Shown in pieces: positions 1,515-30,837 of a stretch of DNA of 32,218 nt. The stretch comes from Sulfurospirillum sp. (GTDB lineage: Bacteria > Campylobacterota > Campylobacteria > Campylobacterales > Sulfurospirillaceae): NCBI GenBank assembly GCA_021206415.1, contig JAJOKG010000182.1, positions 1 to 32,218 of the forward strand, in the 5' to 3' direction. Made by a program: the position numbers and the translations under genes. The notes beneath the pieces are model-generated. The model saw nothing but the letters and a program-made list of their open reading frames with translations. It ran no database searches and had not been told where the DNA came from. The stretch's first letter is position 1; each line of letters begins with the position of its first letter.

Positions 1515-1530
1515 TACAAGCTTACATGTA

Positions 1531-1556
1531 AAAAGACCCACAAAAGAGGGTCTTTT
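1531..1556. terminator. Bidirectional hairpin between convergent RRM gene and pldA
   Basis: AAAAGACCC-acaaaaga-GGGTCTTTT; A/T tracts on both sides. Confidence 0.8.
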
Positions 1557-1565
1557 AAATATTTT

Positions 1566-2612
1566 TTAGCGTGAAAGCGCGAAACCTATGCCAATGCGGT
1601 CACTGCGTTTGTTGTAGTCAATAAGACTTTCTGCATAACCACTATAAAATTGCAAATAACCAAAAAGATTTTCTTCCCATAGCGGAAATGTCCAGTCGAG
1701 TTGCACTGCGCCTTTGTTATCCGAATCAAAGTGTAAATTATTACGCACTAAGAGTTTAAATGTATGTTTTTTCCATGGATAAATAAGTTCCAAATCGCCA
1801 TTGCCCAAGTATTCATCGATGTCAGGATTGTCATCGCTGGATGCTTTTTCTTTTATTCGGTACCAAATTCGTGGCGCTATAATCATATCTCCTGCTTGAA
1901 AAAAAGCCTTTGCATAGAGGCGGTTCCACGAACGTGATTTTTCTTCATCTTTTCCATTTGATTCATGAACAATACCAAATTGGTAGGCTTTAATAAAACT
2001 TTCACGCTCAACGTGTGGCATAATCACAAACAATTCAGGTTGGTAATTTGTCTCACGGAAGGGCGCAGAATCTTCAGCTGTTTGCCACCATGCTGTATGA
2101 GTGTAGGCTAAAACTATACTCTCATGCAGTCCTAAAAGATTATCCACAAGGTCTTTTTGAAAACTGAGTTGAAATTTTGTTTCTTGATGTTTTCTATTGT
2201 CATGTGAAACTTTATCGTACGTCATAGGAAGCAGGTAATTCATTTTATAAGGAGCAATATCAAAAGCTTGGGTAATCATTTGCTTCATGGAAGTATAGGT
2301 GTCTGTGTCATTATAGTTTTCTAAAAAAGAGCTATAAACTGCTTCGGTACGTTCGATTTTGTGTAAGCGCTCTGCAATGGTACTTTCAAGTGCTTTTGTT
2401 TGTGCGGATTTTTTTTCTAAACTTAACATGGCAGCTTGTTTGTACCACAAGAATGCGCGTTCTTTGTCATCTTCTTCTTCATAATAAAGTGCTAAGGTAT
2501 ACGCTGCTTCCGCATCGCCATAACGTGCTTTTTCTTCGAGTGCGGTTGTGTCTATGGCCAAAAGTAGCAGGGGCATGCAGACTAAGGAAAGCAAAAAAGA
2601 GACTTTTTTCAT
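1566..2612 (-). CDS. pldA: Phospholipase A1 (OMPLA family) with N-terminal Sel1/TPR-like segment
   Basis: Signal peptide; YGDAEAAYTLALYYEEEDDKERAFLWYKQAA (Sel1-like); C-terminal FGIVHESNGKDEEKSRSWNRLYAK active-site-like motif and beta-rich end. Confidence 0.8.
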   Translation of the reverse strand: MKKVSFLLSLVCMPLLLLAIDTTALEEKARYGDAEAAYTLALYYEEEDDKERAFLWYKQAAMLSLEKKSAQTKALESTIAERLHKIERTEAVYSSFLENYNDTDTYTSMKQMITQAFDIAPYKMNYLLPMTYDKVSHDNRKHQETKFQLSFQKDLVDNLLGLHESIVLAYTHTAWWQTAEDSAPFRETNYQPELFVIMPHVERESFIKAYQFGIVHESNGKDEEKSRSWNRLYAKAFFQAGDMIIAPRIWYRIKEKASSDDNPDIDEYLGNGDLELIYPWKKHTFKLLVRNNLHFDSDNKGAVQLDWTFPLWEENLFGYLQFYSGYAESLIDYNKRSDRIGIGFALSR

Positions 2613-2630
2613 CTGTTTACTTTTGGAAGA

Positions 2631-2918
2631 TTAATATTCATAGTCAACGACTTTTGTGAGGGTGTGAATGGATTTTAAAAATTCGAGTACTTTTACATGT
2701 AAAGGGTGAATGGCGTAAGCAAGCAAGTCTTCTTTGTTCTTAAAATCAGTTATGAGCGCGAGATCAAACGCTCTCTCTTCTGGGGAAAAATTAAGCCCAA
2801 CTTCCATATGAACCAGCACATCAATTTGATCTTTTAAGCTCATGATGCGTTCTTTGACGATGTGTTTGTTTGCTTCTGAATTGTCTTCCAGTTTTAAAAA
2901 TACAATATGTTTAACCAT
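2631..2918 (-). CDS. Dabb (stress-responsive A/B barrel) domain protein
   Basis: MVKHIVFLKLEDNSEANKHIVKERIMSLKDQIDVLVHMEVGLNF...; start at 2918. The longer track ORF is produced by the upstream frameshift. Confidence 0.75.
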   Translation of the reverse strand: MVKHIVFLKLEDNSEANKHIVKERIMSLKDQIDVLVHMEVGLNFSPEERAFDLALITDFKNKEDLLAYAIHPLHVKVLEFLKSIHTLTKVVDYEY

Positions 2919-2941
2919 AGAGAAAATTCCTTTAATGTGAT

Positions 2942-4111
2942 TTAATCTAATGCGTGTGGTTGATCGATGATATAGCCTTGAAAAAAAATCAAATGCAAGG
3001 GCATGCACCGTTTCAAGGGTTGCGTTTGAATTAATATGGGTTGCAACAGTTTTTATTTTTTTTGTTTGACATATTTCTAAAATCTTTTTACATGTAAAAA
3101 GAGCGTGTTCATCAACACAAAGATTGCGGATGAGGTTTCCGTGTACTTTGATGCTATCAAGCATTCCTTCATCAAAGTGATGCAACAGTTCACTCTCTTG
3201 TACGTTATCAAGTGCAATGAAAATATGAGATTCTTTGAGCTTAGTAATGGCATTTTTAAAAAGAGATATAGGGGTTTTAGGTTGATATTCAATCTCTAGG
3301 ATAATAGGTTTATTTTTAAGTTCTTTTTCAAAAAATGCGATGCGTTCATTGTCGATAAGGTCTTCAGAAGAGAGATTGAGCGCAATGACAATATTTTTTG
3401 CAGAAGCCAATTCAACTGCTTTTTTTGTGATACTATGCAACAAAAGATCATAGAAATGGCGTTTTTTAGCAATTTTGAGAAAGAGTTTTGGTGATTGTAG
3501 GGTTTGGTGATAGCTAAACGCAAAAGTGCTTCATAGCAAAAAGGTTGATCTTTTTTGTCTAAAATGGATTGAAAATGAAGAACAATTTGGCCTTCTTCAA
3601 TCGCTGTTTTCATCATTGTCTCAATAGCTTCTTCATTTTCATTCATTAAGACATTGGCAAATTCTGAGTAGGTAACAAAGAGTTGATTTTCAGCCTTGGC
3701 GACTAATAGCGCTTTTTGTGCTTTTTCAAGTGCATCAAAATGGTCAAAACTAATGCCAATGTGAACAGTGTATGTAATCGTTTGATGAGCATACGTCGTG
3801 GATAAGTTTTCCATGGCACTGCTTAAAGCACCAATGAGGTTTTCCATTTTTGTGAGTTCAAAAGGGATGTCGATGAGCAGAATAAATGTATCATCGCAAA
3901 GATGAAAAACCTCCATTTCATGAGTGGTGGCAAAGGAAGAAAGGGTTGTAAAAAATGAAGAAAGAACATGGCATCCACCCTCGTCACCATAGCCTAGTAC
4001 GATAGATTGAAACTGCTTAATGTCGATGAGAAAGAGTTTTGGGCTTTTACATGTAAGGATTCGTGATTCAAACATATCTCGCGAGGGAAAGTGGTTTACA
4101 TTTTCAATCAT
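2942..4111 (-). CDS. Degenerate GGDEF-EAL protein (frameshifted)
   Basis: Two ORFs join: ...EVFHLCDDTFILL... (GGDEF position) and HFQSILDKK...YEALLRLA...ALNLSSEDL...EIEYQ...; breaks near ~3516 and in the A8 run 2981-2988; restored C-terminus ...ALAFDFFQGYIIDQPHALD*. Confidence 0.75.
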
Positions 4112-4683
4112 AGGCGCTCCTTAGCTTCTTCATATTCTGCAGGATGATTCACGTTTAAAAAAGGTTCATCCTTCTCAAACGGAGTGTATTGCGTATGGCT
4201 CTGGTTTAAGAGTAGACGAATTTTATGTTCATTGTTTGCCAGCAGGATGCGAATGTTATCTAAAATAGAAGGTTTATAGATGGCACACAACTGATGGGAT
4301 GAACAAGGTGACGTTGCGATGATAGCATCATCATCTTCACGCATCTTTTGGTAGAGTGTCTCAAAAATTTCAGGGGTAACAAAGGGTGTATCAACGCTTA
4401 GAACGCATACGGGTGTTTTGAAATATTCCAAAATAGAGAGCAGAGCCACAAGCGGCGAATGCTCTTGGTAGGTCGTATTGTCTTCAATAAAAGAGGCATC
4501 AAAATCAAACTTCTCACGCTTTTTGGTACTTACATGTAAACTTTCAAAAAAGGGTTGAAGCCTTGCTAGTTGGTATTCAGTGAGCGTTTTAAACCCACCA
4601 AAGGGAAGCAAAGCTTTATCGCTTCCCATACGTGAACTTTTCCCGCCAGCAACAATGACTAAAGGGAGCGGGATAAACGTCAT
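4108..4683 (-). CDS. mobA: Molybdenum cofactor guanylyltransferase
   Basis: LVIVAGGKSSRMGSDKALLPFGG nucleotidyltransferase signature. Confidence 0.85.
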   Translation of the reverse strand: MTFIPLPLVIVAGGKSSRMGSDKALLPFGGFKTLTEYQLARLQPFFESLHVSTKKREKFDFDASFIEDNTTYQEHSPLVALLSILEYFKTPVCVLSVDTPFVTPEIFETLYQKMREDDDAIIATSPCSSHQLCAIYKPSILDNIRILLANNEHKIRLLLNQSHTQYTPFEKDEPFLNVNHPAEYEEAKERL

Positions 4684-5954
4684 TACAGTGTTCTTGGATC
4701 GGTGATTTTGCCCATAACGGCACTGGCAGCTGCTACGGCTGAATTGGCAAGGTAAATTTCACTGGTGCGATCCCCCATGCGTCCGACAAAGTTACGGTTG
4801 GTGGTCGCTACACAGCGTTCCCCTTTTCCTAAAATACCCATGTAGCCACCTAAACATGCACCACAGGTTGGGTTACTAAAGACAGCGCCTGCTTCCACAA
4901 AAATTTCCACTAAGCCCTCTTTTTGCGCTTGTAAGGAGATTTTTTGTGTTGCTGGGGTGATAATCAAACGGGTTTTGCGTGCGACTTTGCGACCTTTAAG
5001 AATGCTCGCTGCAATACGCAAATCTTCCAAACGACCGTTGGTGCAACTGCCAATAAAGACTTGGTCAATCGCCAAATCGTCCTGAACCGCTTGGTTAATC
5101 GACTTTCCATTTGATGGCAAGAAAGGATAGGCAATGACAGGGTCAAGATTGGCGACATCAATGTGAAGCACTTGAACATACGAAGCATCCACATCAGAGT
5201 AGAAAAATTTAGGTTCTCGTGCAAGGTTTTTGTCACTTAAAAAGGCTTTGGTGATCTCATCAACAGCGACAATACCGCTTTTAGCCCCCGCTTCAATTGC
5301 CATGTTACAGAGTGAAAAACGATCATCCATGCTGAGGTGTGCGATGGTATCTCCTGTAAATTCTAAGGTGCGGTACAAAGCTCCATCCACCCCTAAAAGG
5401 CGAATCACTTCAAGAATCAAATCTTTACCGTAAACATGTTGTTTGGGTTTGCCACTGAAAACCACTTTGATGGATTCAGGCACTTTAAACCAGTTCTCAC
5501 CCGTAATCATCGCAAACGCTAAGTCGGTGGAGCCCATACCCGTTGCAAATGCACCAAGCGCACCATGCGTACAGGTGTGAGAATCCGCACCAATAATCAC
5601 ATCGCCTGAAACAACAAGCCCTTTCTCAGGCAACAACGCATGTTCAATACCCATGTCTTTTTCATCAAAATAGTGTTTGAGATCATGTTTGTAAACAAAT
5701 TCACGGCTAATTTTTGCTTGATTCGCACTGGCAATATCTTTGGCTGGAATGTAGTGATCCATGACGATACTAAAGCCATCAGGATTGGCAAGTTTTGTCG
5801 CACCACTCTCTTCAAACGCTTTAATTGAAATAGGAGTGGTAATGTCGTTACCAATGACCATGTCAATCTTACTTTTGACAATTTCACCTGCAAAAACGAG
5901 ATGACCAACATGATCGCTAAAAATCTTTTCAGTAATAGTTTGTCCCATAATCAT
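4683..5954 (-). CDS. leuC: 3-isopropylmalate dehydratase large subunit
   Basis: Aconitase-family motifs: VIGADSHTCTHGALGAFATGMGSTDLA, FIGSCTNGRLEDLR, NPTCGACLGGYMG. Confidence 0.92.
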   Translation of the reverse strand: MIMGQTITEKIFSDHVGHLVFAGEIVKSKIDMVIGNDITTPISIKAFEESGATKLANPDGFSIVMDHYIPAKDIASANQAKISREFVYKHDLKHYFDEKDMGIEHALLPEKGLVVSGDVIIGADSHTCTHGALGAFATGMGSTDLAFAMITGENWFKVPESIKVVFSGKPKQHVYGKDLILEVIRLLGVDGALYRTLEFTGDTIAHLSMDDRFSLCNMAIEAGAKSGIVAVDEITKAFLSDKNLAREPKFFYSDVDASYVQVLHIDVANLDPVIAYPFLPSNGKSINQAVQDDLAIDQVFIGSCTNGRLEDLRIAASILKGRKVARKTRLIITPATQKISLQAQKEGLVEIFVEAGAVFSNPTCGACLGGYMGILGKGERCVATTNRNFVGRMGDRTSEIYLANSAVAAASAVMGKITDPRTL

Positions 5955-6056
5955 ACACCTTACATAGTAAATTAGGGTATTTTATCAAAAAATGGTTTAA
6001 GCGAAGAAAAGAGGGGTCGTGAGAAGAAAAACTTCCTCCTCACTCTGTTTGGATAC

Positions 6057-6284
6057 TTATCGTCCGCAGCCACATCCTCCGCCACCACATGTATTTGAAT
6101 CATCATTTTTAGAGGTGTCTAAGTTAAAAGGAAGATAAGCTGGGCAAAAACGAATAATGGCAGTCGCCAAAAGAACAACACCAATCAGTCCAAACCAACT
6201 GTTATAAATGACGCCTAAAATAGCGATTAAAATCCCCGCAATCATACGAATCATTTTGTCTGTTTTTCCAACATTACATTTCAT
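6057..6284 (-). CDS. DUF2892 (YgaP-like) membrane protein with Cys/Gly-rich tail
   Basis: MKCNVGKTDKMIRMIAGILIAILG...GLIGVVLLATAIIRFCPAYLPF...CGGGGCGCGR. Confidence 0.8.
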   Translation of the reverse strand: MKCNVGKTDKMIRMIAGILIAILGVIYNSWFGLIGVVLLATAIIRFCPAYLPFNLDTSKNDDSNTCGGGGCGCGR

Positions 6285-6368
6285 AATAAACTCCTTGTAG
6301 TTAAATTGGAGTTATTATATCCTATTTTAAAGAAAATCAATTCTTTTACTAAATGATAAAAATTACTA

Positions 6369-6397
6369 TTGACAAATATTTATTCTTTTGTTAGAAT
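6369..6397 (+). promoter_or_regulatory. Sigma70-type promoter of the peroxiredoxin gene
   Basis: TTGACA (6369-6374), 17-nt spacer, TAGAAT (6392-6397); SD aaggag upstream of ATG 6436. Confidence 0.7.
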
Positions 6398-6435
6398 GTC
6401 ATCATCAAAACAAATTAAAACGATAAGGAGTTATT

Positions 6436-7540: not shown

Positions 7541-7654
7541 GCGTGCTCCTTGAAAAAAAATCATATCACAGTATGATACACTATGGTTGCTCAAAAAAAT
7601 GTGCAAATAAAGATATAATAAGCATCAAATCCTCTTTACATGTAAAGGTTAAAT

Positions 7655-8110
7655 ATGGTGAAGTGCACGTTTGAATCTCCTTTGGGGTTATTACTAGCAC
7701 AGGCGAATGCGCAGGGAATTTGCGTATTAGATTTTACATGTAAGGATGAAAAACACGCCGAAGAGAATGGGCATATTATTCAGCTTAGAAGAGAGTTGGA
7801 TGCCTATTTTGAGGGAAAATTAAAGCAGTTTTTAGTACCTTTGGTGCCCATGGGAACACCGTTTCAAAGAGGTGTTTGGGAGGTTTTGCGAGCGATTCCT
7901 TACGGCAAGACCATCTCGTATAGCCGTGAAGCGGAGCTTTTGAAACACCCAAAGGCCGTGCGTGCGGTTGCCAATGCCAATGGCAAAAATCCCATTGCAA
8001 TTCTTATCCCGTGTCATCGGGTGATTGCCAAAGATGGAAGTATGGGTGGGTACAGCAGTGGGGTGTGGCGTAAAGAGTATCTTTTAAATTTGGAGCAACA
8101 GTATCGATGA
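7655..8110 (+). CDS. ogt: Methylated-DNA--protein-cysteine methyltransferase
   Basis: IPCHRVIAKDGSMGGYSSGVWRKEYLL; FQRGVWEVLRAIPYGKTISY. Confidence 0.93.
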   Translation: MVKCTFESPLGLLLAQANAQGICVLDFTCKDEKHAEENGHIIQLRRELDAYFEGKLKQFLVPLVPMGTPFQRGVWEVLRAIPYGKTISYSREAELLKHPKAVRAVANANGKNPIAILIPCHRVIAKDGSMGGYSSGVWRKEYLLNLEQQYR

Positions 8111-9249
8111 AAGTCGTCATAGCAATTGATTCGTATAAAGGGTGTGCAAGTTCGCAAGAGCTTTCAGGATGGATAGCAGAGGGTATTCGAAACGTCTACG
8201 CAGAAGCCGAGATTCAGGCCTGTTATATTGCCGATGGTGGCGAGGGAATGCTTCATGCCTTAATGCAAAATAGCGATGGTAAAATTATTACATGTAACGT
8301 ACATAACCCGTTGATGCAAGTCATTGAAGCGCAGTATGGTATCTTAAGTGACGGCATCACGGCGGTGATAGAAATGGCGCAAGCCTCAGGGCTTCCGTTA
8401 GTGCCTAAAGAGCAACGCAACCCATTAAAAACCACCACCTATGGCGTGGGAGAGTTGATAAAAGACGCACTTGGGAGAGGATGTCGCAAATTTATTGTGG
8501 GTATTGGTGGCAGTGCGACCAATGATGCGGGACTTGGGATGCTTCAAGCATTGGGGTACCGATTTTTAGATGAAAATGGTGATGTTTTGGGGTACGGTGG
8601 TGAGATTTTAGAGAGCATTGCGAGTGTGGATGTCTCAGATGTTGAGCCTTTGCTAGAGCAGTGTGAATTTAGCGTGGCGTGTGATGTGGACAATGTGATG
8701 TATGGCACCAAAGGGTGTGCGCAGGTCTATGCGCCACAAAAGGGGGCTGATGCGTTGATGGTGGAGCGTTTGGATGCGGGCATGGTGCATTTTTGTACTC
8801 TGCTTGAAAAAGCGTATGGCAAAGCCATAGCGCATGTAGCAGGTTCAGGTGCCGCTGGCGGTATGGGCGGAGGAATGCTGGCATTTTTAAACAATACCTC
8901 ACTTCGCTCGGGCATTGAGATTATCTTAGATGCCATGCATTTTGATGAAGCGCTTAAGGGTGCTAATCTTGTTATCACAGGTGAGGGGCGCATTGATACG
9001 CAATCACTCATGGGAAAAGTCTTAAGCGGGGTTTCCAAACGTGCGCATAAAGCGGGTGTGCCTTTGATCGCCTTAGGGGGTGGCATTGCTGATGATTTGG
9101 AGGTGCATGAGGGGATTGACGCCCTTTTTTCCATTATGCGCTACCCCATTGGTTTGGAAGAGGCGATGGAGAAAGAGCGCACCAAAATGCTGGTGATTAA
9201 AAGTACGACAGAGATTTTTAGATTGATTCGTGCTATTTTACGAAAGTGA
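8107..9249 (+). CDS. glxK: Glycerate kinase
   Basis: KVVIAIDSYKGCASSQE...IADGGEGM...VGIGGSATNDAGLGMLQALGYRF; overlaps ogt stop (ATGA). Confidence 0.88.
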   Translation: MKVVIAIDSYKGCASSQELSGWIAEGIRNVYAEAEIQACYIADGGEGMLHALMQNSDGKIITCNVHNPLMQVIEAQYGILSDGITAVIEMAQASGLPLVPKEQRNPLKTTTYGVGELIKDALGRGCRKFIVGIGGSATNDAGLGMLQALGYRFLDENGDVLGYGGEILESIASVDVSDVEPLLEQCEFSVACDVDNVMYGTKGCAQVYAPQKGADALMVERLDAGMVHFCTLLEKAYGKAIAHVAGSGAAGGMGGGMLAFLNNTSLRSGIEIILDAMHFDEALKGANLVITGEGRIDTQSLMGKVLSGVSKRAHKAGVPLIALGGGIADDLEVHEGIDALFSIMRYPIGLEEAMEKERTKMLVIKSTTEIFRLIRAILRK

Positions 9250-9252
9250 TAA

Positions 9253-10579
9253 ATGAAACATAAAGAACTGATTTTAATTAACGATTTTTTACACCAATAC
9301 CACAAAATTTCCTCGATTTACCGTGTGGACGATAATGTCTTACGCATTGTGTTTGAAGCAGGGGAAGCGCTTTTTATTGACCTCTCACGCAATGATTCGT
9401 ACCTGTTTTACAAGAGCGATTTTAAACAATCCAAACGCTATAACGCTCCTTTTGACGTGCTCTTAAACAAACGCTTTGCTAATGCGAAAATTCTCTCCAT
9501 GAAGGTAGAAGAAAATAACCGTATTTGGCGCATCTGTGTGCTTTCAAGCTCAAGTTACAAAGCCTTTGAGACCACCTTACAACTGGAATTTACAGGGCGC
9601 AATACCAATGCGATTATCTTAGATGAAGACGAAGTAGTGTTGGAAGCTTTGCGTCACATTGATGCGAGTGTGAGCTTTCGCAGTGTCAAAGTGGGCGAGG
9701 TGTTAGAGCCTTTGCCACCTAAAGAGCTCAAAGAGAAGCCTTTTGAGATGGAAGGAAGCGTTGAGGATTATTTGCATGCAAGCTATGAAAAACGCTTACA
9801 TGTAAAGCTTCGTGAACTCAAAAATCAAAAAAAAAGCGGCTCTGGAGCGAAAGAGTGAAAAGCTTACCGAAGCGATGAATGCCCTAGAAAATGAGGAAGA
9901 ACTTTTAGCCAAAAGTGAGCAAGCGCACAAAGAGGCAACGCTGGTGTTAGCGCATTTGTATAGCATTAAAAATTATCAAGAGCGTGTGGAGCTTTATGAT
10001 TTTGATGGAGAACTTGTGAGCATTGCGTTACCTCTGGCGCATTCGCCTCAACACGCCGCTAATCTGCTCTATAAGAAGTCTAAAAAATTGCGTCAAAAAG
10101 CCTTTTCGATTCACAGACAGCGGGAAAATCTAGAAGAGAAACGCCTCTTTTTGGAGCGGATGATGGGGGTGATTGAAGGGGCAAGGGATTTGGAAGAGAT
10201 ACACATCTTAACGCCCAAAGTTACCAAGCAGAAGCAAAAGGGCGAAGATAACAATTATGAAACCTTTTGGCTGGAGGGGTACCGCATTTTGTTGGGTAAA
10301 AACGAGAAGGGAAATATCGCACTGTTGCAAGAGGCAAAAAAGAGCGACATTTGGTTACATGTAAAAGATTTACCTTCATCGCATGTGATTATTTGCACCG
10401 AAAAACAGAGCGTGCCTGAGCCTATTTTGATTTTTGCAGCGAAGTTGTGCGTGGATTTTAGCCTCTCTCAAAAAGGTGGCTATTTGGTCGATTATACCCA
10501 ACGTAAAAACGTGAAGCCCTTTGATGGAGCGAATGTTGCTTATGAGACGTATCAGACGCTCAAAATCTACAAAGAATAA
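9253..10579 (+). CDS. NFACT-family (RqcH-like) protein (frameshifted)
   Basis: N-terminal NFACT-N-like ORF joined to ...YETFWLEGYRILLGKNEKGN...SDIWLHVKDLPSSHVII (NFACT-R); break in the A9 run 9827-9835. Confidence 0.8.
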
Positions 10580-10604
10580 GTCTTACATGTAAAAGGAGGA
10601 GAGT

Positions 10605-10928
10605 ATGGCAGTAGGTCCTATTGGTAGTGTGGTGTATGCGAATCAAATGATGCCAGCACAATCAGCAAAGCAGATGGATTATCAAAACAGTGTTCAAATG
10701 CAAAACGCACTTGCCGCTGCCATGCAATCTGAAAAAGAAGATGAGGTGCAAGAGGTACGACCACCCGAGGAGAGTTATAAAATAGACCCTGAAAATGAGC
10801 ACGAACGTCATAAACACGATGAAGAAGAGCGTGAGGCGTCTCATGAAAACAAAAAAGAGGATGAGATTCAAGAAGAGGGTGAAGAGGTGGTTATTGTACA
10901 AAAGGGGCACTTGGATATTAAAGCTTAA
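10605..10928 (+). CDS. Hypothetical protein with very charged Glu/Lys/His-rich C-terminal half
   Basis: 107-aa ORF with strong SD (aaggagg). Confidence 0.65.
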   Translation: MAVGPIGSVVYANQMMPAQSAKQMDYQNSVQMQNALAAAMQSEKEDEVQEVRPPEESYKIDPENEHERHKHDEEEREASHENKKEDEIQEEGEEVVIVQKGHLDIKA

Positions 10929-15518: not shown

Positions 15519-16639
15519 ATGTTTCGCCTCTCTTTTGCTCTGGTTGCGATTGCTGTTTTATCGCTCATTAATTATTATGCGTACAGACGCTTTTTGAAGC
15601 GTCTGGATTTTTTAGTGGGGTATCAGCTTTGGATTAAAGGGGTCATGTTTTTGATGACCCTTTGTGAAATTGGCTATTTTTTAGTATTACGTTTAGATAG
15701 TTTAGATCCTTTTTTATATGCGCTTTTTTCTTCGATGATTGGTGTTTCATTTATGCTTTTTTGTGTGGCATTGCTCTACGATTTGTTTCATCTTCCCTAT
15801 GCCAAAATTCCGCATGATTACTCCAGACGACTTTTTCTCAAAATGGTTTTTGATGTCACGATGCTGGTTTTAGCATTTTCATATATGATTAAAGGGTTTT
15901 TCAATGGTATGAAATCGCCGTTGATCAAAGAGGTGGATGTTGTCATTGAGGGCTTGGATGAAGGGTTGAGCATTGTGCAGATTAGTGATGTGCACATTGG
16001 TAAAGTTTTAGGCAAAGCGTTTATGGATGAGATTGTGCAAAAAATCAATACATTAAACGCCGATGTAGTTGTTATTACGGGCGATTTGGTGGATATGCCT
16101 GTGGCTCAAATTGGGAATACCCTAGACGCCCTACGTGAGATAAAAAGCCATTTAGGTGTCTTTTTTGTACCAGGGAATCATGAGTATTTTTACGGAGTTC
16201 ACACGATTATGGATTTTCTTAAAACACGGGGTGTTCAGGTGTTAGAGAATGATTCTGTGGTCATTAACGAGCGTATCAATTTAGTGGGAGTGACGGATAT
16301 GATGGGCAAACGCTTTGATTTCTTACCGCCGGATTTAACAAAAGCCTTTTTACATGTAAGGATGATTTACCCACGATTTTACTCTCCCATCAACCTAAAA
16401 TTGTCAAAGAGCTTAAGGGTGAAAAGATAGATTTAATTCTCAGCGGTCATACGCATGGTGGACAAATTTTCCCCTTTGGGCTTTTAGTGCTTCTTGACCA
16501 GCCATATTTGAGCGGACTTTATCAGCACTCTAAACGCACACAGATTTTTGTGAGCAATGGTGCTGGGTATTGGGGGCCTGCGGTTCGGGTGATGGCACCT
16601 AGTGAAATTGTAAAACTCAATCTTAAGCCTAAAGCATGA
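15519..16639 (+). CDS. Membrane-anchored metallophosphoesterase (frameshifted)
   Basis: IVQISDVHIGK, VVITGDLVD, FVPGNHEYFYG, then in another frame ILLSHQPKIVKEL...LILSGHTHGGQIFPFG; break near 16358. Confidence 0.87.
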
Positions 16640-17178
16640 AATCATTTTATGTACTATTTCTTATCGCCCTACTTTTTACAGGATGCAGTGTTAAGCAAGA
16701 ATCTTTACATGTAAAAAGAGAGGGCTTAGAAAAACTCACCAACGATTTGATGCTTTTGGGTGAGAATGTGCGTTACGATGAAGCACGTTTATTTGCCTAT
16801 GAAGCACTGAATTATCCGCATGTTTTAGCGACACGCTATGCGCTTGTGAGTCCACCTACATTTCATAATTTTCTCATTAACACAGGGCTTAAAGAGCGAG
16901 GGCTTTGTTATGAATGGAGTGAAGATATGATGGCACATCTTAAAAAAGCACGCTATAAGAGTTTTGATTTACGTTGGGGGGTTGCGAATAAAGGTGAATT
17001 TGATGAGCATAACAGTGTCGTGGTTGTGGCAAAAGGGGCACCGTTTCACAGTGGTATTTTAATAGATCCATGGCGTAATTCAGGAGAATTGTATTGGGTA
17101 AAATTAGACGAAGATGCCACATACCATTGGGTTGAAAATTTAGAGAGAAGCCGTTATTTTGGAACCCTTCATCCTTAA
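16636..17178 (+). CDS. Putative lipoprotein
   Basis: Signal peptide with lipobox (LLFTGC). Confidence 0.7.
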   Translation: MKSFYVLFLIALLFTGCSVKQESLHVKREGLEKLTNDLMLLGENVRYDEARLFAYEALNYPHVLATRYALVSPPTFHNFLINTGLKERGLCYEWSEDMMAHLKKARYKSFDLRWGVANKGEFDEHNSVVVVAKGAPFHSGILIDPWRNSGELYWVKLDEDATYHWVENLERSRYFGTLHP

Positions 17179-17875: not shown

Positions 17876-18470
17876 ATGAATTATCCAACTTTTTTTTGAT
17901 CACACAGAAACCATAATCCTTTATGACCCACTTTCAGAGATTTTAGGTGCATTTGAAGAGGGAAAAATTTGCTTTACGTATGTGGATGTGGTGAAAAGTG
18001 CGGGGCATAGTTGTCCTACGATAGCAGGGGCTTATTTGATGGTAAGAGAAGGACTTAAAATACTTTATCCAGATAGCTTACCTGTACGAGGAGAGATTGA
18101 AGTTTTCTTTAAAGAGCCACAAGAAGAGGGAACAACAGGTGTAATTGCCAATGTTTTTTCACTCATCACAGGCGCAACCGATTGCTCTGGATTTAAGGGC
18201 TTACAGGGTCATTTTTCACGCACGAACCTGCTGCATTTTAATGAGGAAATATCTTTACATGTAAAGATGAAACGACGTGATAATGGCAAAGAAGTGCATG
18301 TGGCGTATGATCCAACGTGCATTGCCATCAATCCTTCTATGCAAGCATACATGCCTAAACTCTTTACAGGGTTACTCACATGCGAAGAAAAGAAACTTTT
18401 TGCCAATATGTGGCAAGAAAGGGTGGCGCAAATTTTAGAAAATTTTGATAAAGTAATAACTCTACATTAA
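17876..18470 (+). CDS. FmdE-like domain protein (frameshifted at 5' end)
   Basis: MNYPTFF|DHTETIILYDPLSEILGAFEEGKICFTYVDVVKSAGHSCPTIAGAYLMVREGLK...; break in the T8 run 17890-17897. Confidence 0.65.
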
Positions 18471-21376: not shown

Positions 21377-21407
21377 TCATATAAAGAAATCATTACATAG
21401 GGTTTTT

Positions 21408-22154: not shown

Positions 22155-23158
22155 TTTTAAGTATTGAAAGTAGCTGTGATGATAGCTCCATTGCCATCAC
22201 ACGCATTGAGGATAAAAAAACTACTCTTTCATAAAAAAAATTTCCCAAGATGAAGAGCACGCAAAATACGGTGGGGTTGTTCCAGAACTGGCTGCGCGTC
22301 TTCATGCCGTGACTTTGCCAAAAATTTTAGAAGAGACAAAGCCTTATTTTGAGACACTTAAAGCGATTGCCGTGACGAATGAGCCAGGCCTTTCGGTGAG
22401 CCTTGTTGAAGGCGTGAGCATGGCAAAAGCACTGAGTATTGCGCTAAATCTCCCTTTACTAGGGATTAATCATCTAAAAGGGCACATTTGTTCTTTATTT
22501 ATTGAAGATGAAATACGTTTTCCCATGGACATTCTTTTGGTTTCTGGCGGACACACACAGCTTTTACATGTAAAGAGTTTGGAGCAGATTGAGTTGATTG
22601 CCACAACGATGGATGATAGCTTTGGTGAGAGTTTTGATAAAGTGGGAAAAATGTTAGGACTTGCTTATCCTGCTGGAGCAATGATTGAAACATATGCTCA
22701 AAAAGGGGATGCGAAGCGCTTTGATTTTACCATTCCTTTGCAAGGAACCTCTTCCTCCATGCTTGCGTTTAGCTATTCAGGTCTTAAAAATCAAGTCAGA
22801 CTTTGCATTGAAGCTCAAGGAAATTTGGATGAGCAAACGCTATGCGATATTTGCGCTTCGTTTCAGCGTGTCGCCGTAGCCCATGTGATGCAAAAAATAA
22901 AAAAAGCCTATAAAGAGCGAAAAGTAGAACACTTTGGTGTGGTAGGCGGTGCGAGTGCGAACGGTTATTTAAGGGGTGAACTTGAAGCGTTTTGCAAAAC
23001 AAAAAAAAGCGACTCTGCACATGGCTAAAATGGAATTTTGTTCTGATAATGCGGCTATGATAGGTAGGTGTGCGGTGGAAGCTTACACGCAAGGGATATT
23101 TGTTGATATGGCGGATTTAAAGGTGCGTAGTTCCTCTAAAGATATGTTTTACATGTAA
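22151..23158 (+). CDS. tsaD: tRNA N6-adenosine threonylcarbamoyltransferase (frameshifted)
   Basis: [17 protein letters not shown]...[13 protein letters not shown]...[10 protein letters not shown]...[17 protein letters not shown]...[14 protein letters not shown]. Confidence 0.92.
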
Positions 23159-23161
23159 GCA

Positions 23162-23936
23162 TTAGAGGATAATAATTTCCTCTTCGAGTTTTATGCCAAA
23201 GCGTTTTAAAACCTCTGCTTTGACTTCCGTGATGAGCGCAAATGCTTCTTCAAATGTTCCCCCTCCTGTATTGACCAAAAAGTTGGCGTGCACAGGGCTG
23301 AACATCATTGCTCCCACCCGTTTGCCTTTAAAGCCAGCCTCTTCAATAAGTTTACCAGCATAGTGTCCCACAGGGTTTTTAAAACAGCTTCCAGCACTCG
23401 CTTCTTTGGGTTGATTATCCCGCATTTTTTTTAAACATAGCAAGGAGATTTTCATCAAATCCCTCTTTACATGTAAAGGTAGCTTCATACACAACCCCTT
23501 CAATGTCCGCAAAGCGGTAGCCATAGTTTATCTTTGATTTTTCTATCCAGCCATTTTCGGTGCGAATGGCGATAAGATGGTTAAATACTTCCCACTCTTT
23601 AAGCCCCGCATTCATAGCAACCATACCGCCTAGCGTTCCTGGGAGTTTTTGCATTAATTCAAAGCCAGAGAGGTTGTGCTTTCTAGCAAAAGAGAGTATT
23701 TTACCACTAGGAGTGGCTCCTCCTACATGTAATACATGACCCTCTTGATAGATAAAATCAAACGCTTTATCCAGCATAGCAAGTGGCGGAGGTGTTGGGC
23801 TTACAAGAAGGTTATTTGCTCCACCGATGATGATGTGCTTTTCTGGAAGTGGCTTGGGTGTTTCAAGGAGAAAAACATCCACACTTGGGCCAATTTTTAT
23901 GCTGGAATAGCTTGAAAAATGAATAGTTTTTGTCAT
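23162..23936 (-). CDS. murB: UDP-N-acetylenolpyruvoylglucosamine reductase (frameshifted)
   Basis: IIGGANNLLVS...LPGTLGGMVAMNAG...|KEASAGSCFKNPVGHYAGKLIEEAGFKGKRVGA; break in the T8 run near 23425-23432. Confidence 0.9.
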
Positions 23937-24203
23937 TTAAAATACAAAACTTGGAATCATGTCAAAAAGACGGGTGGTAAACTCTATCATCATGTTCATC
24001 ATCCATGGCATAGTGAATATGGCAACCACAATGGTAATTAAAATCTTCGGAACAAAACTGAGTGTGGATTCGTTGATTTGGGTAACGGCTTGAAAAATAC
24101 TAATAGCAAGACCTGCTATCATACCTGCAAGAAGCATTGGCAAGGAGAGATAGAGCGCAATTTTAAAAGTTTCAACACCTAATCCGATCAGTTTTGCTTC
24201 CAT
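23937..24203 (-). CDS. fliQ: Flagellar export protein FliQ
   Basis: 88 aa: LPMLLAGMIAGLAISIFQAVTQINESTLSFVPKIL. Confidence 0.92.
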   Translation of the reverse strand: MEAKLIGLGVETFKIALYLSLPMLLAGMIAGLAISIFQAVTQINESTLSFVPKILITIVVAIFTMPWMMNMMIEFTTRLFDMIPSFVF

Positions 24204-25069
24204 TAGCTCATCCTAAGGGTTTCATACTCGTGAGGAATAAGATAATCTTGTGCTTGAATGCATTGCTCATAAAAACCATGTTTATAGCCAAGTTCAAACA
24301 GGGTATTAATGGCTTCATATTGCACATCGCTCATCTCGATAGAGTGTGCGTTGGCATAGAGTCCCAAATAGGTTTTAAGGGTCGTATCATCCACTCTAAC
24401 AAGGTTCCGCTCAATGAGCATTTTAGAGAGAAGGTGTTGATGGGTATGGGCAACATCGACTGCTTTAATGAGGCTTTTTTCACAGGTAATGGCTTGTAAT
24501 AATGGCATAGAACGGCGCAGCGCCATACCGCCAAGTGGGAGAGGAAGCTCTTTACCTTGCGTTAAGCTTTTCCAAATATCCCAAATCTCACGTTCCACAA
24601 CCAGCATCTCACTAAAATTGAGGATACTTTCATGAATTAATACTCCTGCATCGACTTCGCCACTCAAAACGGCATTTTCAATCTCTAAAAAGTTTTTATA
24701 GACAATGCGTGCTTCAGGATAAGCGATTTTAAACAAAAGGGCGTTGGTCGTGTGCGTACCACTGAGCGCTACTTTAAAATTGCGTTTGAGTTTGCTCTCT
24801 TTTTTCTTGACCAGTTTGGGACCATACCCTTCACCAAAACTCACCGCCGTGCGCAAAAGAGCATAATCGTTTCGAATTTTAGGGTACAACGCAAAGCTAA
24901 TTGCACTGATATCATAGGTGGTTTTCAAGGCTTCAACGTTGAGGGTTTCAATGTCTAAGGCGATATTTTCAAAGCAGACATCGCCTGTGTCCACCCAGCC
25001 AAATTTGATGGCATAATACATGAAAATATCATCGGCATCAGGGGAGTGTGCTACGCTAATTGTTCTCAC
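24203..25069 (-). CDS. mqnD: MqnD-like menaquinone (futalosine pathway) biosynthesis protein
   Basis: MRTISVAHSPDADDIFMYYAIKFGW...; start reassigned to GTG 25069-25067 with AAGGA 5 nt upstream. Confidence 0.65.
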   Translation of the reverse strand: MRTISVAHSPDADDIFMYYAIKFGWVDTGDVCFENIALDIETLNVEALKTTYDISAISFALYPKIRNDYALLRTAVSFGEGYGPKLVKKKESKLKRNFKVALSGTHTTNALLFKIAYPEARIVYKNFLEIENAVLSGEVDAGVLIHESILNFSEMLVVEREIWDIWKSLTQGKELPLPLGGMALRRSMPLLQAITCEKSLIKAVDVAHTHQHLLSKMLIERNLVRVDDTTLKTYLGLYANAHSIEMSDVQYEAINTLFELGYKHGFYEQCIQAQDYLIPHEYETLRMS

Positions 25070-25220
25070 AAAAATCCTTACATGTAAATCTTTTGGCATT
25101 GTAACATATTGCAGATTGAAATATTTTGAGCCTCTTTTTTGATTTTTGACTACAATCGCTTCAAAGGGCTTTTTCAAGCTCGAGATGATAAAATAATAAC
25201 ACTATGAAATGAGGGGTCAC

Positions 25221-26264: not shown

Positions 26265-27532
26265 TCTATATCGAAGATATAAGCGCAGATGAGGTACTCG
26301 ATAGTCGTGGAAACCCAACCGTTCGAGCACGTGTCAGTTTAAGTGATGGTACGGTTGCAAGTGCCATTGTTCCTAGTGGTGCCAGTACCGGTAAGCGAGA
26401 AGCTTTGGAGCTTAGAGATGCGGACAGTCGTTATATGGGCAAAGGTGTCTTAAAAGCATGTGAAAATGTCAATACGGAGATTTCCGATGAGCTCATCGGT
26501 TTAAGTCCATTTAATCAAGCATTCATTGATGAAGCAATGAAAAAACTTGATGGCACTGAAAATTATGGCCGCTTAGGTGCCAATGCCGTTTTAGGTGTTT
26601 CTATGGCAGTGGCTCGTGCGGCAGCTCAGAGTTTAGGTGTGCCTTTGTATCGCTATTTAGGTGGCGCAAATGCGATGACACTTCCCACCCCGATGTTTAA
26701 CATCATTAACGGTGGAAGCCATGCGAATAACAGCGTTGATTTTCAAGAGTACATGATTATGCCTCTAAACTTTGAGACTTTTTCTGAAGCCTTGCGTGCG
26801 GCAACAGAAGTGTATCACCACTTGAAAAAAATTATTGCTTCTATGGGTGAGAGTACCGCTTTGGGTGATGAGGGTGGTTTTGCTCCTAATCTTAAAGACA
26901 ATGAAGAACCGATTAAAGTTATTATGGAAGCGATTGCAAAAGCAGGTTATACCGCAGGTAAAGATATAGCGATTGCCCTTGATGTCGCAAGCAGTGAATT
27001 GGTGTGCGAGGGTGGCTATAAACTTGACTCTGAAGGTAGAACACTAAGCAGTGCAGAACTTGTAGCATATTATGAAAACCTCTGTGCAAAATACCCTATT
27101 GTTTCGATTGAAGATGGTTTGAGCGAAGATGACTGGGATGGCTGGAAACTATTAACTGAAAAATTGGGCTCAAAAGTACAACTCGTCGGTGATGATTTAT
27201 TTGTAACCAATAAGAAAATTTTGAGTGAGGGTATTGTTAAAGGTGTTGGTAATGCCATTTTGATTAAACCAAATCAAATTGGAACCGTTACAGAGACGAT
27301 GCAAACCGTTCGTCTTGCTCAACGCAATAATTATAAATGTGTGATGAGCCATAGAAGCGGTGAGAGTGAAGATGCGTTTATCGCTGATTTTGCTGTAGCA
27401 CTCAATACCGGTGAAATCAAAACAGGCGCAACCGCACGTGGTGAGCGAACTGCAAAATATAACCGTTTATTAGATATTGAAAATGAAGTCGTCTATGGCG
27501 AGTATGTGGGAACAAAACTTTTTGCTAAATGA
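26261..27532 (+). CDS. eno: Enolase
   Basis: [49 protein letters not shown]. Confidence 0.98.
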
Positions 27533-27804
27533 GCGATGTTTTAGACGAATTTGACCAAGAAAAAAAAGAGGGTACAGAAAGTTCTGCCCTCTTTTATTTG
27601 AAACTTATCTCACTTATTATAGCTGTTGTAGGTTTTGGTTTGTATCTAGGAGATGTTCTTTTTGGAAAAAGTTCTTTAGATGTTCTCTTGAATCTTCAAG
27701 CCGACAAAGATACCTTAACACAAAAAATTCAAAGCCTTAAAGAAGAGAATGCCGTTTTGCAAAAAGAGTATTTTGAGTTGCGGCAACTAGATCCCGATCG
27801 ATAA
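27529..27804 (+). CDS. FtsB/DivIC-like septum formation protein
   Basis: Short protein, one TM helix plus coiled coil; overlaps eno stop. Confidence 0.6.
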
Positions 27805-27818
27805 ACTAAGGAGTATCC

Positions 27819-28516
27819 ATGAGGAAGATTTTTTGGCTTTTTCTGTCACTTATCATCAGTATAGAGGCAAGAGAAAATCCTTTTGAAACAACAAATGCTC
27901 CAGAAGTTGTTGGAAAGACAACCCAAATTGAAGAGAAAAGAAGTGATTTTAAGAGTACATCGATTACATTTCCAAGCAGTGCACGTATTTTAAAAAGTGT
28001 TACGCTAACGTTTCAAAATCTTGATGGCTCCATTGAGGAAGAACACCAAAATATTGACCAAAACATTGATTGGCATCATCCTCTTTTATTATCGCCGCAA
28101 GGTGTTGAAAAATCTACGCCTCCTCCTGCACCTGTTCCACCTCTTACAAAAAAAAAAATATTGAAGTAAAAGATCTAAAGAGTGTACCCAGTATGCCATC
28201 TGTTAAAACAAAGAGTGAAGAGCGTGTAAAACTTGTTGAGAATATTTTTTTATTGGCAGAAGGGAATGAAATTAAAATTTTTACTAAAGATTTGAAGATT
28301 CGTGATTTTCTAGTAGCCGATCCTTATAAAATAGTTCTTGATTTTAAAAGAACACGTTCGTTTGCAACAAAAACGGTTGATTTAAAAAAGAATCCTTTTG
28401 TTTTAGCAACATTGGGAGAGCATAAAGATTTCTATAGGATTGCTATTTTATTAGATGGACACTATCGTTATGATTTGCAAACTTTTGAGGGTGGATACAG
28501 TATAAAACTGAAGTAA
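27819..28516 (+). CDS. AMIN-domain periplasmic protein (frameshifted)
   Basis: Signal peptide ORF plus ...NEIKIFTKDLKIRDFLVADPYKIVLDFKRTRSF... (AMIN-like); break in the A11 run near 28148-28158. Confidence 0.7.
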
Positions 28517-28520
28517 GATG

Positions 28521-28556
28521 TTTTTACATGTAAGGAGAAATCCTTACATGTAAAAA
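28521..28556. terminator. Perfect 16-bp-stem bidirectional terminator built from two TTACATGTAA copies
   Basis: TTTTTACATGTAAGGA-GAAA-TCCTTACATGTAAAAA between the convergent AMIN gene and gltA. Confidence 0.85.
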
Positions 28557-28559
28557 ATA

Positions 28560-29852
28560 TTAAAGCTCAAATTTTGGTGTTCGTTCGACAGGTCCAATGT
28601 AGTGTTGACGAGGACGTGCGATTTTCATATCGGGTTGTTCTTTGAGTTCAATCCACTGCGCAACCCAACCAGGGGTTCTTCCAATCACAAAAATAACAGC
28701 AAACATCTCTTTTGGAATTTTAAGCGCTTGTAAAATAAGCCCTGAGTAAAAGTCAATGTTAGGGTAGAGCTTACGTTTAATGAAATACTCATCATTTAAA
28801 GCAATTTCCTCAATACGGTGTGCAACAGCCATAAGTTCAGTATCAATTGAGAGTTCATTGACCAATTTCTTTTGAAGATTTTTCAAAATGGTTGCGCGTG
28901 GATCAAAGTTTTTATACACCCTGTGCCCAAATCCCATCAGTCTGAAAGGATCATTTGGGTCTTTGGCTTTGGCAATATATTTATCAACATTATCAACCGT
29001 ACCAATTAATTCTAATTGACGAATGACGGATTCGTTCGCTCCACCATGCGCTCGTCCCCAAAGCGCACCAATACCCGCACTAATCGCTGCATAAGGGTGA
29101 GCATGGGTTGAAGCCACAACACGCACGGAGGTCGTAGACGCATTTTGTTCATGATCGGCATGGAGCGTAAAAATGGTATCGAGTGCTTGAACTTCAATAG
29201 GTTTTAAATCAATATGGTGGTGCGGATAGCCTCGTAACATATACAAAAAGTTTTCTGTAAAGCCTTTATCCAAATCAGGATAAATAATAGGTAATCCCTG
29301 AGAATAACGATAGGAAAATGCTGCAATCGTAGGAATTTTTGCGACAATGCGATGCGCCATCTCTTTAGCTTCTTCGGGTGAATCCATATCCAAATGGTCA
29401 AAATAAAACGTAGAAAGCGCAGAAACCGCCGCTGATAAAATAGCCATAGGATGTGCGTTATCAGGGAACGCATCAAAGAGTTTACGCATACTTTCGTGGA
29501 TAAAAGAGCGTTTTTTGAGTTCCGCTAAAAAGTTTTTATACTGCTCTTTGGTCGGTAATTCTTTGTGCAAGAGTAAATAGGCCGTATCTAAAAATGATTT
29601 TTTCGTTGCAAGATAGGCGATATCATAACCTCGATACATCAATTTGCCAATATTGCCATCAATGTAGGTGATTTGAGAGCGACAACTTGCCGTTGAGGTA
29701 AAACCACGATCTAAAGTAAACATGCCTGTATTGGCATAAAATGAAGATATATCAACGACATCAGAACCAAGAGTTGCTTTGAGAATAGGAAACTCAAATT
29801 CCTCTCCTGTGCGATTATCAATAAGGGTAACAGTATCTTTACTCATACACAT
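28560..29852 (-). CDS. gltA: Citrate synthase
   Basis: YIDGNIGKLMYRGYDI; GFGHRVYKNFDPRA; IGRTPGWVAQWIE. Confidence 0.97.
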   Translation of the reverse strand: MCMSKDTVTLIDNRTGEEFEFPILKATLGSDVVDISSFYANTGMFTLDRGFTSTASCRSQITYIDGNIGKLMYRGYDIAYLATKKSFLDTAYLLLHKELPTKEQYKNFLAELKKRSFIHESMRKLFDAFPDNAHPMAILSAAVSALSTFYFDHLDMDSPEEAKEMAHRIVAKIPTIAAFSYRYSQGLPIIYPDLDKGFTENFLYMLRGYPHHHIDLKPIEVQALDTIFTLHADHEQNASTTSVRVVASTHAHPYAAISAGIGALWGRAHGGANESVIRQLELIGTVDNVDKYIAKAKDPNDPFRLMGFGHRVYKNFDPRATILKNLQKKLVNELSIDTELMAVAHRIEEIALNDEYFIKRKLYPNIDFYSGLILQALKIPKEMFAVIFVIGRTPGWVAQWIELKEQPDMKIARPRQHYIGPVERTPKFEL

Positions 29853-29924
29853 CCTTTACTAAAACAGTTAAACTCATAATGGCATTTATTATAGCAAATT
29901 TCTTTTCGTTCAAATGAAGAATAA

Positions 29925-30777
29925 TTAGACTACGTGATGACAGATGCTTGCGACACTGTATCCTAATTTCTCAATCATTTCTCTATCACGGTTAGGCGCT
30001 TCCCCTTTGGTCGTCAAATAATCTCCGACAATAATCGAATCCGCCCCTGCTACAAAAATATCACACGTTGGACTAAAGGTTTGCTCACGTCCTCCTGCTA
30101 TCATTAAAACACTCTCTTTAGGAAGTTTGGCTTTAAATGTTTTAATAATTTCAAGTGCTTCTGCTTCGCTTAAAGGGTTTGCTTTGAGTGGCAAGGCAGG
30201 ATTTGAGATATAAAAATTAAGAGGAACGGTTTCAGGGGAAAGTTCGCAAATACTTTGGAGTAAAGAGGCTCTATCCGCTTCACTCTCTCCTAGACCGACA
30301 ATGCCTCCTGTAAATAAAAAGAGTCCTGCTTCTTTTGCATTCAAACAGGTTTGGTAACGCCCTTCCCATGTATGCGTGGTACAGATATGAGGGTAAAACT
30401 CTTTGGAACTCTCTAAATTATGGTTATACGCATTTACACCCGCTTCTTTGAGGGCTTTGAGTTGCTCAATACTCGCCGTTCCATTACACGCGATTAAAAG
30501 AAGATGTGGAAGTTCGCTTTTTACCGCACGAGCCGCTTCACAGACGAAGGAGAGTTTTTTATCATCCAGTCCAAGACCTGATGTGACCAAACAAAAACCA
30601 AGCGCACCGTTTTGTGAAGCGCATTTGGCTTCGTGAACAATCTGCTCAATGGCTTTGTATTTGTAGCGTTCAATATCAGCGTTATGGTGCGCACTTTGGG
30701 TACAAAATCCGCAATCCTCCGCACAACTTCCGCTGGAAATATTGCAAATAGAACATAAAAAAAATAGGTTTTTTCAT
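29925..30777 (-). CDS. bioB: Biotin synthase (frameshifted near the start)
   Basis: FLCSICNISSGSCAEDCGFCTQSAHHNADIERYKYKAIEQIVHEA...GFCLVTSGLG; break in the A8 run near 30757-30764. Confidence 0.92.
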
Positions 30778-30837
30778 TAGGTATTTTTCCTTACATGTAA
30801 AGATAGGTGAGATGGTTTTGGAAGAGAAGAAGAGTGC

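What the first reader, a model, noticed from the sequence alone, without database searches (positions are those of the whole stretch)
1522..30800. Hyper-abundant dispersed palindrome TTACATGTAA, a candidate undescribed genome-wide DNA word
Seen: 21 exact copies in 32.2 kb, about one per 1.5 kb. With an assumed ~40% GC, independent bases predict about 0.08 copies (0.3^8 x 0.2^2 x 32218), so enrichment is over 200-fold. Of about 26 ACATGT hexamers I found, 21 carry the full TT/AA flanks and two more miss by one base. Only three (near 44, 5443, 6086) lie outside the motif, so the bare hexamer is not common. Knowledge: comparable per-genome words are HIP1 of cyanobacteria, DUS of Neisseriaceae and USS of Pasteurellaceae; one per 1-2 kb is in the USS/DUS density range. 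Inference: a site for an abundant DNA-binding, methylation, uptake or segregation system. I recall no description of this word in Campylobacterota, but I cannot search.
Basis: partly seen in the sequence, partly recalled or inferred. Interest (0 to 1): 0.9.

Follow-up and report, generated by a model that had tools for sequence, protein, structure and literature searches.

The report
Genome-wide palindrome tied to DNA methylation
Bacteria of the genus Sulfurospirillum carry about one copy of the ten-letter palindrome TTACATGTAA per 2,000 DNA letters, kept exact by strong selection and usually paired with a stand-alone DNA-methylating enzyme, which makes it a close counterpart of the unexplained HIP1 word of cyanobacteria and possibly a 'self DNA' mark.

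Summary
TTACATGTAA occurs 21 times in the window (shuffles 0.05), 1,035 times in its 2.09-Mb genome (reversed control 10), and 600-1,500 times in most Sulfurospirillum species. Spread along the chromosome is Poisson-like. Sites are held exact: 69 of 69 aligned sites are intact in a 93%-identical relative (control about 0.6), 55 of 73 at 83% identity (control 0.15-0.3). Inner one-letter variants sit near chance. The word has imprinted proteins (LHV 189 against 24-42 for its permutations). Close pairs form hairpins, mostly between convergent genes. A+T phased at 11 bp flanks the dyad for at least 60 bp. A genome of another family carries a CATG-cored alternative, TATCATGATA (1,549 copies), imprinting YHD.

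In the genus, words are dense in all 15 genomes with a lone D12 adenine methyltransferase of the HpyIM (CATG) family and sparse in 6 of the 7 near-complete genomes without that ortholog, over 3-4 independent losses. MutL is absent, so the mismatch-repair model for HIP1 does not fit.

Best reading: a HIP/uptake-word-like, methylation-linked word, most likely a self-DNA mark for uptake (inferred, about 40%); a nucleoid or gyrase site is the main rival.

The parts
1522..1531 (.). word, intergenic (between convergent ORFs, 8 bp after a stop)
2693..2702 (.). word in ORF 2631-3443(-), LHV frame
3088..3097 (.). word in ORF 2631-3443(-), xTC frame
4047..4056 (.). word in ORF 3296-4111(-), xTC frame
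4530..4539 (.). word in ORF 4108-4683(-), LHV frame
7636..7645 (.). word, intergenic, 9 bp before the start of ORF 7655-8110(+)
7734..7743 (.). word in ORF 7655-8110(+), xTC frame
8288..8297 (.). word in glycerate kinase ORF 8107-9249(+), xTC frame
9796..9805 (.). word in ORF 9253-9858(+), LHV frame
10355..10364 (.). word in ORF 9812-10579(+), LHV frame
10583..10592 (.). word, intergenic, just before the AAAGGAGG of ORF 10605-10928(+)
16350..16359 (.). word in phosphoesterase ORF 15519-16430(+), LHV frame
16705..16714 (.). word in ORF 16636-17178(+), LHV frame
18255..18264 (.). word in ORF 17982-18470(+), LHV frame
22564..22573 (.). word in ORF 22309-23028(+), LHV frame
23149..23158 (.). word, intergenic between convergent ORFs
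23467..23476 (.). word in overlapping ORFs 23162-23524(-) and 23415-23936(-)
25078..25087 (.). word in ORF 24203-25177(-), LHV frame
28524..28553 (.). word pair (28524-28533 and 28544-28553) forming a hairpin of 13-bp word stem and GAAA loop between convergent genes; position conserved in the genus; terminator-like
30791..30800 (.). word in ORF 30777-31322(-), LHV frame (this ORF overlaps the topoisomerase ORF and may not be a gene)
23723..23732 (.). end-base variant CTACATGTAA
31115..31124 (.). end-base variant TTACATGTAG

Best explanation
TTACATGTAA (core TACATGTA, ends relaxed to Y/R) is a hyper-abundant, methylation-linked genome word of Sulfurospirillum and relatives, a counterpart of cyanobacterial HIP1 and of DNA-uptake words. 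Shown: it is genome-wide and evenly spread; it is kept exact by selection or biased transmission strong enough to rewrite protein sequence; it sits in DNA with 11-bp phased A+T; close pairs form hairpins; another lineage uses another CATG-cored palindrome; and within the genus it is dense wherever an orphan D12 adenine methyltransferase of the HpyIM (CATG) family is present and sparse in most lineages lacking it. Inferred: the enzyme methylates the CATG core, and a protein reads the methylated, bent word. Most likely reader (inferred, not shown): the DNA-uptake apparatus, preferring DNA that bears the methylated word as 'self', as CtsM-methylated RAATTY does in Campylobacter jejuni. Preferred uptake would spread the word by transmission drive; loss of the enzyme ends the drive and the words decay.
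For: Counts; exact conservation 69/69 and 55/73 against controls; inner one-off variants near chance; LHV and YHD imprint; phased flanks in coding and intergenic sites alike; alternative CATG word; methyltransferase covariation in the genus and in family f17; HpyIM annotation of homologs and HpyIM = CATG; methylation-dependent uptake in C. jejuni; ComEC in all 26 genomes tested; fewer exact words on a plasmid, 0.10 per kb; hairpin pairs.
Against: No uptake or methylation data. Uptake words known to me are not palindromic and have many one-off copies. Phasing extends beyond what is known for USS. The enzyme is not strictly coupled: G017, G025, G027, G029, G037, G161 bear words without a full-length homolog; G076, G090, G335 have a homolog and no word. 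Only 3-4 independent losses, not significant after phylogenetic correction. ComEC is also in word-poor genomes, so it does not discriminate. The plasmid's 8-mer core is still raised (14 TACATGTA in 39.9 kb).
Confidence: 0.4

Rival explanations
1. Chromosome-architecture site: a nucleoid protein or DNA gyrase binds the (possibly methylated) word at the centre of about 120 bp or more of phased, bent DNA and wraps it; more than 1,000 evenly spread sites organise or supercoil the chromosome.
For: Dyad-locked 11-bp A+T phasing in all site classes, like the 10.75-bp periodic arms of the E. coli gyrase motif; even spread; purifying conservation.
Against: Does not by itself explain the methyltransferase link, an alternative word in relatives, or loss in close relatives. 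The gyrase motif is degenerate and its periodicity lies outside a central 36 bp, whereas here the core is exact and the phase runs from the dyad. Phasing is weaker at TATCATGATA in G083 and not seen at 23 sites of G139.
Confidence: 0.27
2. Methylation-biased repair or mutation creates and keeps the word without any function (Elhai's model for HIP1: methyl-directed mismatch repair).
For: Methyltransferase link and deviations at the end bases, as described for HIP1.
Against: MutL found in none of 14 genomes, in 11 of 14 controls. Would not explain phased flanks to 60 bp or imprinting of amino-acid sequence. A MutL-independent repair bias is not excluded.
Confidence: 0.1
3. The word is the site of a restriction-modification system and merely tolerated because it is methylated.
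For: D12 enzymes of this family often belong to type II systems.
Against: No endonuclease beside the enzyme; protection does not raise a site to 500-fold excess.
Confidence: 0.03
4. The word is a regulatory or terminator element.
For: Hairpin pairs between convergent genes, fourfold intergenic enrichment.
Against: About 70% of sites are single and inside genes; pairs account for about 5% of words.
Confidence: 0.03
5. The word is a mobile repeat.
For: Dispersed palindrome.
Against: No conserved sequence beyond about 14 bp; orthologous sites conserved in place.
Confidence: 0.01

Closest known systems
HIP1 (GCGATCGC) and alternate HIPs of cyanobacteria (Elhai 2015, PMC4390886)
   Same: Exact palindrome, hundreds to over a thousand per genome, in coding and non-coding DNA; orphan methyltransferase for an internal sequence; low where the enzyme is missing; replaced by other palindromes in some lineages; deviations at the end bases.
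   Different: Another phylum, AT-rich (HIPs are GC-rich), CATG core, density about half, MutL absent, 11-bp phased flanks, hairpin pairs.
DNA uptake sequences (DUS of Neisseriaceae, USS of Pasteurellaceae)
   Same: Density, sharp core, peptide imprint, close pairs as hairpins, helically spaced A/T flanks, variants between relatives (features of DUS/USS from my own knowledge).
   Different: Palindromic; few inner one-off copies; linked to a methyltransferase; no uptake evidence.
CtsM/RAATTY methylation-dependent uptake of Campylobacter jejuni (PMC10046745, PMC8627207)
   Same: Same phylum; orphan adenine methyltransferase marks DNA for uptake.
   Different: RAATTY is a short, very frequent site (28,482 in one C. 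coli genome), not a hyper-abundant 10-bp word; the enzymes were not compared.
E. coli DNA gyrase motif (PMC6379681)
   Same: Dyad-symmetric A+T phasing near 11 bp over about 130 bp.
   Different: Degenerate, no exact core; no methylation link.

Membership tests
HIP (highly iterated palindrome) | Palindrome over-represented genome-wide far above Markov expectation | tested here: met
HIP (highly iterated palindrome) | Methyltransferase predicted for an internal sequence present when the word is abundant | tested here: inconclusive
   Met in Sulfurospirillum with one exception among near-complete genomes; exceptions in other genera and in f17
HIP (highly iterated palindrome) | Replacement by another palindrome where the first is low | tested here: met
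   TATCATGATA in G026 and G083
HIP (highly iterated palindrome) | One-letter deviations concentrated at the end bases | tested here: met
HIP (highly iterated palindrome) | GC-rich sequence, cyanobacterial host | tested here: not met
   20% GC word in Campylobacterota; so not filed as HIP1 itself
DNA uptake sequence (DUS/USS) | Preferential uptake of DNA bearing the word | not testable with these tools
   needs transformation assays
DNA uptake sequence (DUS/USS) | Competence channel gene ComEC present | tested here: met
   26 of 26 genomes, but word-poor ones too
DNA uptake sequence (DUS/USS) | Non-palindromic core | tested here: not met
   perfect palindrome; this lowers membership, not similarity of working
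HpyIM/NlaIII-type CATG methyltransferase (the linked enzyme) | D12 adenine methyltransferase with motifs FxGxG and DPPY, homologous to HpyIM | tested here: met
   Pfam D12, sequence, phage homologs annotated as ulcer-associated methyltransferase
HpyIM/NlaIII-type CATG methyltransferase (the linked enzyme) | Methylates CATG | not testable with these tools
   needs methylation calls or digestion assays
Gyrase site | Periodic arms to about 63 bp either side, and cleavage in vivo | tested here: inconclusive
   Periodicity present; cleavage not testable

The most novel reading that the evidence does not exclude
The word is a methylation-gated, sequence-specific DNA-wrapping site: a protein reads methylated TTACATGTAA at the centre of 120 bp or more of 11-bp-phased DNA, giving a bacterial chromosome over 1,000 evenly spread, nucleosome-like anchoring points whose word is switched by acquiring another methyltransferase.
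Probability: 0.18. Interest if true: 0.95.

Novelty: new variant of a known kind. Interest (0 to 1): 0.8.

Why it matters
HIP1 has been unexplained for decades. Here is an independent case in a culturable genus, with several losses and an alternative word in other lineages, in organisms where the mismatch-repair model for HIP1 lacks its MutL. It gives sharp predictions (methylation, binding partner, uptake) and a word that visibly rewrites proteins, a strong example of DNA-level transmission or selection overriding protein sequence. If the uptake reading holds, it would be the first abundant uptake word in Campylobacterota that I know of, and a methylated one.

Tried and rejected
Artefact or local repeat: rejected by genome-wide counts. 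Ori/ter or segregation word: counts per 20 kb are Poisson-like. MutL-dependent repair: MutL absent. Mobile repeat: no conserved flank beyond about 14 bp, and orthologous sites are shared. Coding (alpha-helix) origin of the 11-bp phasing: rejected, because intergenic, LHV-frame and TC-frame sites show the same phase and amplitude. ComEC as discriminator: present everywhere. Preferential retention of hairpin pairs in word-poor genomes: only weak. Active purge of words in G008 (0 of 22 intact): not claimed, because sites gained in G019 bias that count. Depletion of inner one-off variants, suspected from an early count: not borne out, they are near chance. First enolase tree was spoiled by mixed strands and redone. 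No solved structure matched the enzyme by sequence.
Full report
OBSERVATION. TTACATGTAA occurs 21 times in the window exactly where stated; dinucleotide shuffles give 0.05, and no other 10-bp palindrome exceeds two copies. The window's own genome (G000, 2.09 Mb, 185 contigs) holds 1,035 copies against 10 of the reversed control. In the 23 other species of its genus the count is 605-1,496 in 18 and 49-412 in five. Related genera of the family carry 6-733; almost all other families of the order carry 0-6. The core is TACATGTA with ends T/c and A/g; searched as an 8-mer it is also raised in scattered genomes of a second family, f17: G139 608, G161 611, G211 848, G315 368, G230 221.

IDENTITY. The genus is Sulfurospirillum: a second copy of the enzyme described below lies on contig C2 of G016 at the same coordinates as on the S. 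diekertiae plasmid NZ_CP059996.1.

ANATOMY. In 400 kb of G019, 116 of 163 words are inside predicted genes and 46 between them, where about 7% of the DNA is intergenic, a fourfold enrichment. In genes the word is read mostly as Leu-His-Val (77) or x-Thr-Cys (35); the third frame has a stop. Counts per 20 kb over the whole chromosome have variance/mean 1.08, so there is no ori/ter bias. Relative to a Markov model on masked sequence, 800 kb of G019 has 358 words (0.57 expected), 68 variants at the two end bases (2.4 expected) and 33 at the eight inner positions (21 expected): the word is nearly all-or-none.

SELECTION OR DRIVE. Aligning the same region of relatives: G007 (93% identical) has 69 of 69 words intact, against 60-65% for control 10-mers; G023 (83%) has 55 of 73, against 15-32%; G008, a word-poor species (80%), 0 of 22 (the last figure is inflated by sites gained in G019). 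The tripeptide LHV is found 189 times in 239,155 residues against 24-42 for its permutations; in the first 400 kb, of 54 LHV[KN], where composition predicts 2.2, 53 are spelled by the word. In word-poor G008 LHV is ordinary (4 against 2-6). So the force acts on DNA and overrides protein sequence.

FLANKS. A+T content oscillates around the word with a period near 11 bp, in phase with the dyad, amplitude 0.042 over 8-63 bp, against 0.006 mean and 0.009 maximum for random positions and 0.005 for matched TT......AA controls. Intergenic, LHV-frame and TC-frame sites behave alike, so coding structure is not the cause. A second, independent 400 kb gives 0.044, and the 21 window sites alone give 0.042 against a null maximum of 0.037 in 300 draws. 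The genome as a whole has a weaker 11-bp A+T autocorrelation, so words sit in, or have phased, bent DNA. Phasing is weaker around TATCATGATA in G083 (0.016) and not seen in the 23 G139 sites.

PAIRS. Words 20-23 bp apart are in excess and fold as hairpins, mostly between convergent genes with stop codons a few bases away. The window's 28524/28544 pair is one (fold -20.5 kcal/mol), and both sites are present in 17 of 19 genus members with that locus, the window's genome included, and in G027 of another genus. Whole genomes hold 23-41 such pairs in species with the enzyme and 2-23 in those without. These look like terminators built from the word, a secondary use.

AN ALTERNATIVE WORD. In 60 kb of G026 (genus g4, same family) the most over-represented 10-mer is TATCATGATA; it has 166 copies in that genome and 1,549 in G083 of family f7, against about 0-39 elsewhere. 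It imprints Tyr-His-Asp: YHD 85 against 1 and 1 for DHY and HDY. Both words have a CATG core.

THE METHYLTRANSFERASE. A search for D12 adenine methyltransferases found an approximately 325-aa protein at a conserved locus in word-rich Sulfurospirillum; in G000 it is at C56:31942-32907, outside the window. It has FxGxG and DPPY motifs and no endonuclease beside it; the neighbours identified are a transglutaminase-like protein, a response regulator and an amidase. Related phage proteins are annotated 'ulcer associated adenine specific DNA methyltransferase', that is HpyIM, which methylates CATG (PMC4450513). Within the genus, 15 genomes with this ortholog have 362-520 words/Mb; nine without it, or with only a more distant homolog, have 19, 60, 85, 152, 153, 233, 276, 389 and 467, where the 276 and 467 are incomplete genomes (Mann-Whitney p = 7e-4, or 7e-5 without three genomes under 90% complete). 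In G002, G008, G009, G010, G018, G020 and G021 the neighbouring gene was found but no methyltransferase in the stretch held beside it. On an enolase-region tree this is four changes, with 3-4 independent pairs, none opposed; too few for significance alone. In family f17, 4 of 7 genomes with a homolog and 2 of 26 without have the core raised (p = 0.011; grouping mine); one of the two, G315, has only a stop-interrupted fragment scoring below the family cut-off. Exceptions: G017, G025, G027, G029, G037 and G161 are word-bearing without a full-length homolog; G076, G090 and G335 have a homolog without the word. The enzyme is therefore linked to the word but not proven to be its cause, and other enzymes may do the same job.

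MECHANISM. The pattern (exact palindrome, orphan methyltransferase, replacement, end-base deviations) is that of HIP1 (PMC4390886). Elhai's proposal for HIP1, methylation-directed mismatch repair, does not fit here: MutL was found in none of 14 genomes while 11 of 14 control genomes had it. What remains is a reader of the methylated word. I favour DNA uptake, because C. jejuni, of the same phylum, imports only DNA methylated by CtsM at RAATTY (PMC10046745, PMC8627207), because uptake drive explains imprinting of proteins and decay after loss of the enzyme, and because hairpin pairs and helically spaced A/T flanks are features of USS/DUS as I remember them. A plasmid of S. diekertiae has 0.10 exact words per kb, though its 8-mer core is also raised. 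Against it: palindromy, no excess of inner one-off copies, the length of phasing, and no uptake data. The main rival is a wrapped nucleoid or gyrase site, since the E. coli gyrase motif has dyad-symmetric 10.75-bp periodic arms over 130 bp (PMC6379681).

LIMITS. Genomes are anonymous apart from the inference above; genome sizes of relatives are rounded, so words/Mb are approximate; gene calls in sampled DNA are simple ORFs; the library holds open-licence papers only, so absence of a description is not proof of novelty. A 2018 Nucleic Acids Research paper on HIP1 selection and periodicity, known to me from memory, was not held. G000's comEC region reads in several frames, but a neighbouring gene does too, so assembly errors are likely and no conclusion is drawn.

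Noticed in passing
L054 (Helicobacter magdeburgensis), L062 (Helicobacteraceae MAG), weaker in L060 and L072: AGATTCTA (with its complement) occurs 45 times in 21 kb of L054 and 32 in L062; the palindrome TAGANTCTA 15 and 12 times. A possible further genome word, this one centred on GANTC, another known adenine-methylation target.
   Followed up: partly
L032, L057, L071 (Campylobacterota MAGs): The same TACATGTA core with other ends, CTACATGTAG, 2-4 copies in 12-17 kb each.
   Followed up: no
L043 (Helicobacteraceae MAG): TTGATCAA eight times in 19 kb, a possible GATC-cored word.
   Followed up: no
window; also G026 (L108-L110): GATC is strongly avoided outside the word: 0.40 of expectation in the window and 0.34 in G026, 0.64-0.86 in other relatives sampled.
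   Followed up: no
L298 (pSDCE1), L299 (pSDIE1): S. diekertiae plasmids carry a second, more distant HpyIM-like methylase; TACATGTA is raised tenfold there but mostly without the TT/AA ends, and clusters in the methylase gene and the LexA-like gene.
   Followed up: partly
L018:12900 to L019:14150 (G019 352.9-374.1 kb): The longest word-free gap (21 kb) in the 400 kb holds two phage-type integrases next to a nos (nitrous oxide reductase) cluster, which suggests recently acquired DNA.
   Followed up: partly
L186, L187, L191, L193 (G139, G211, G230, G191): In family f17 the methylase sits between tsaD and dxr-like genes with variable neighbours (in G211 an Eco57I-type methylase), as at an insertion hot spot.
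   Followed up: no
window 7636, 10583 and similar intergenic sites: Several intergenic words abut a purine-rich ribosome-binding site (TTACATGTAAAAGGAGG), so the word may sit in mRNA leaders.
   Followed up: no
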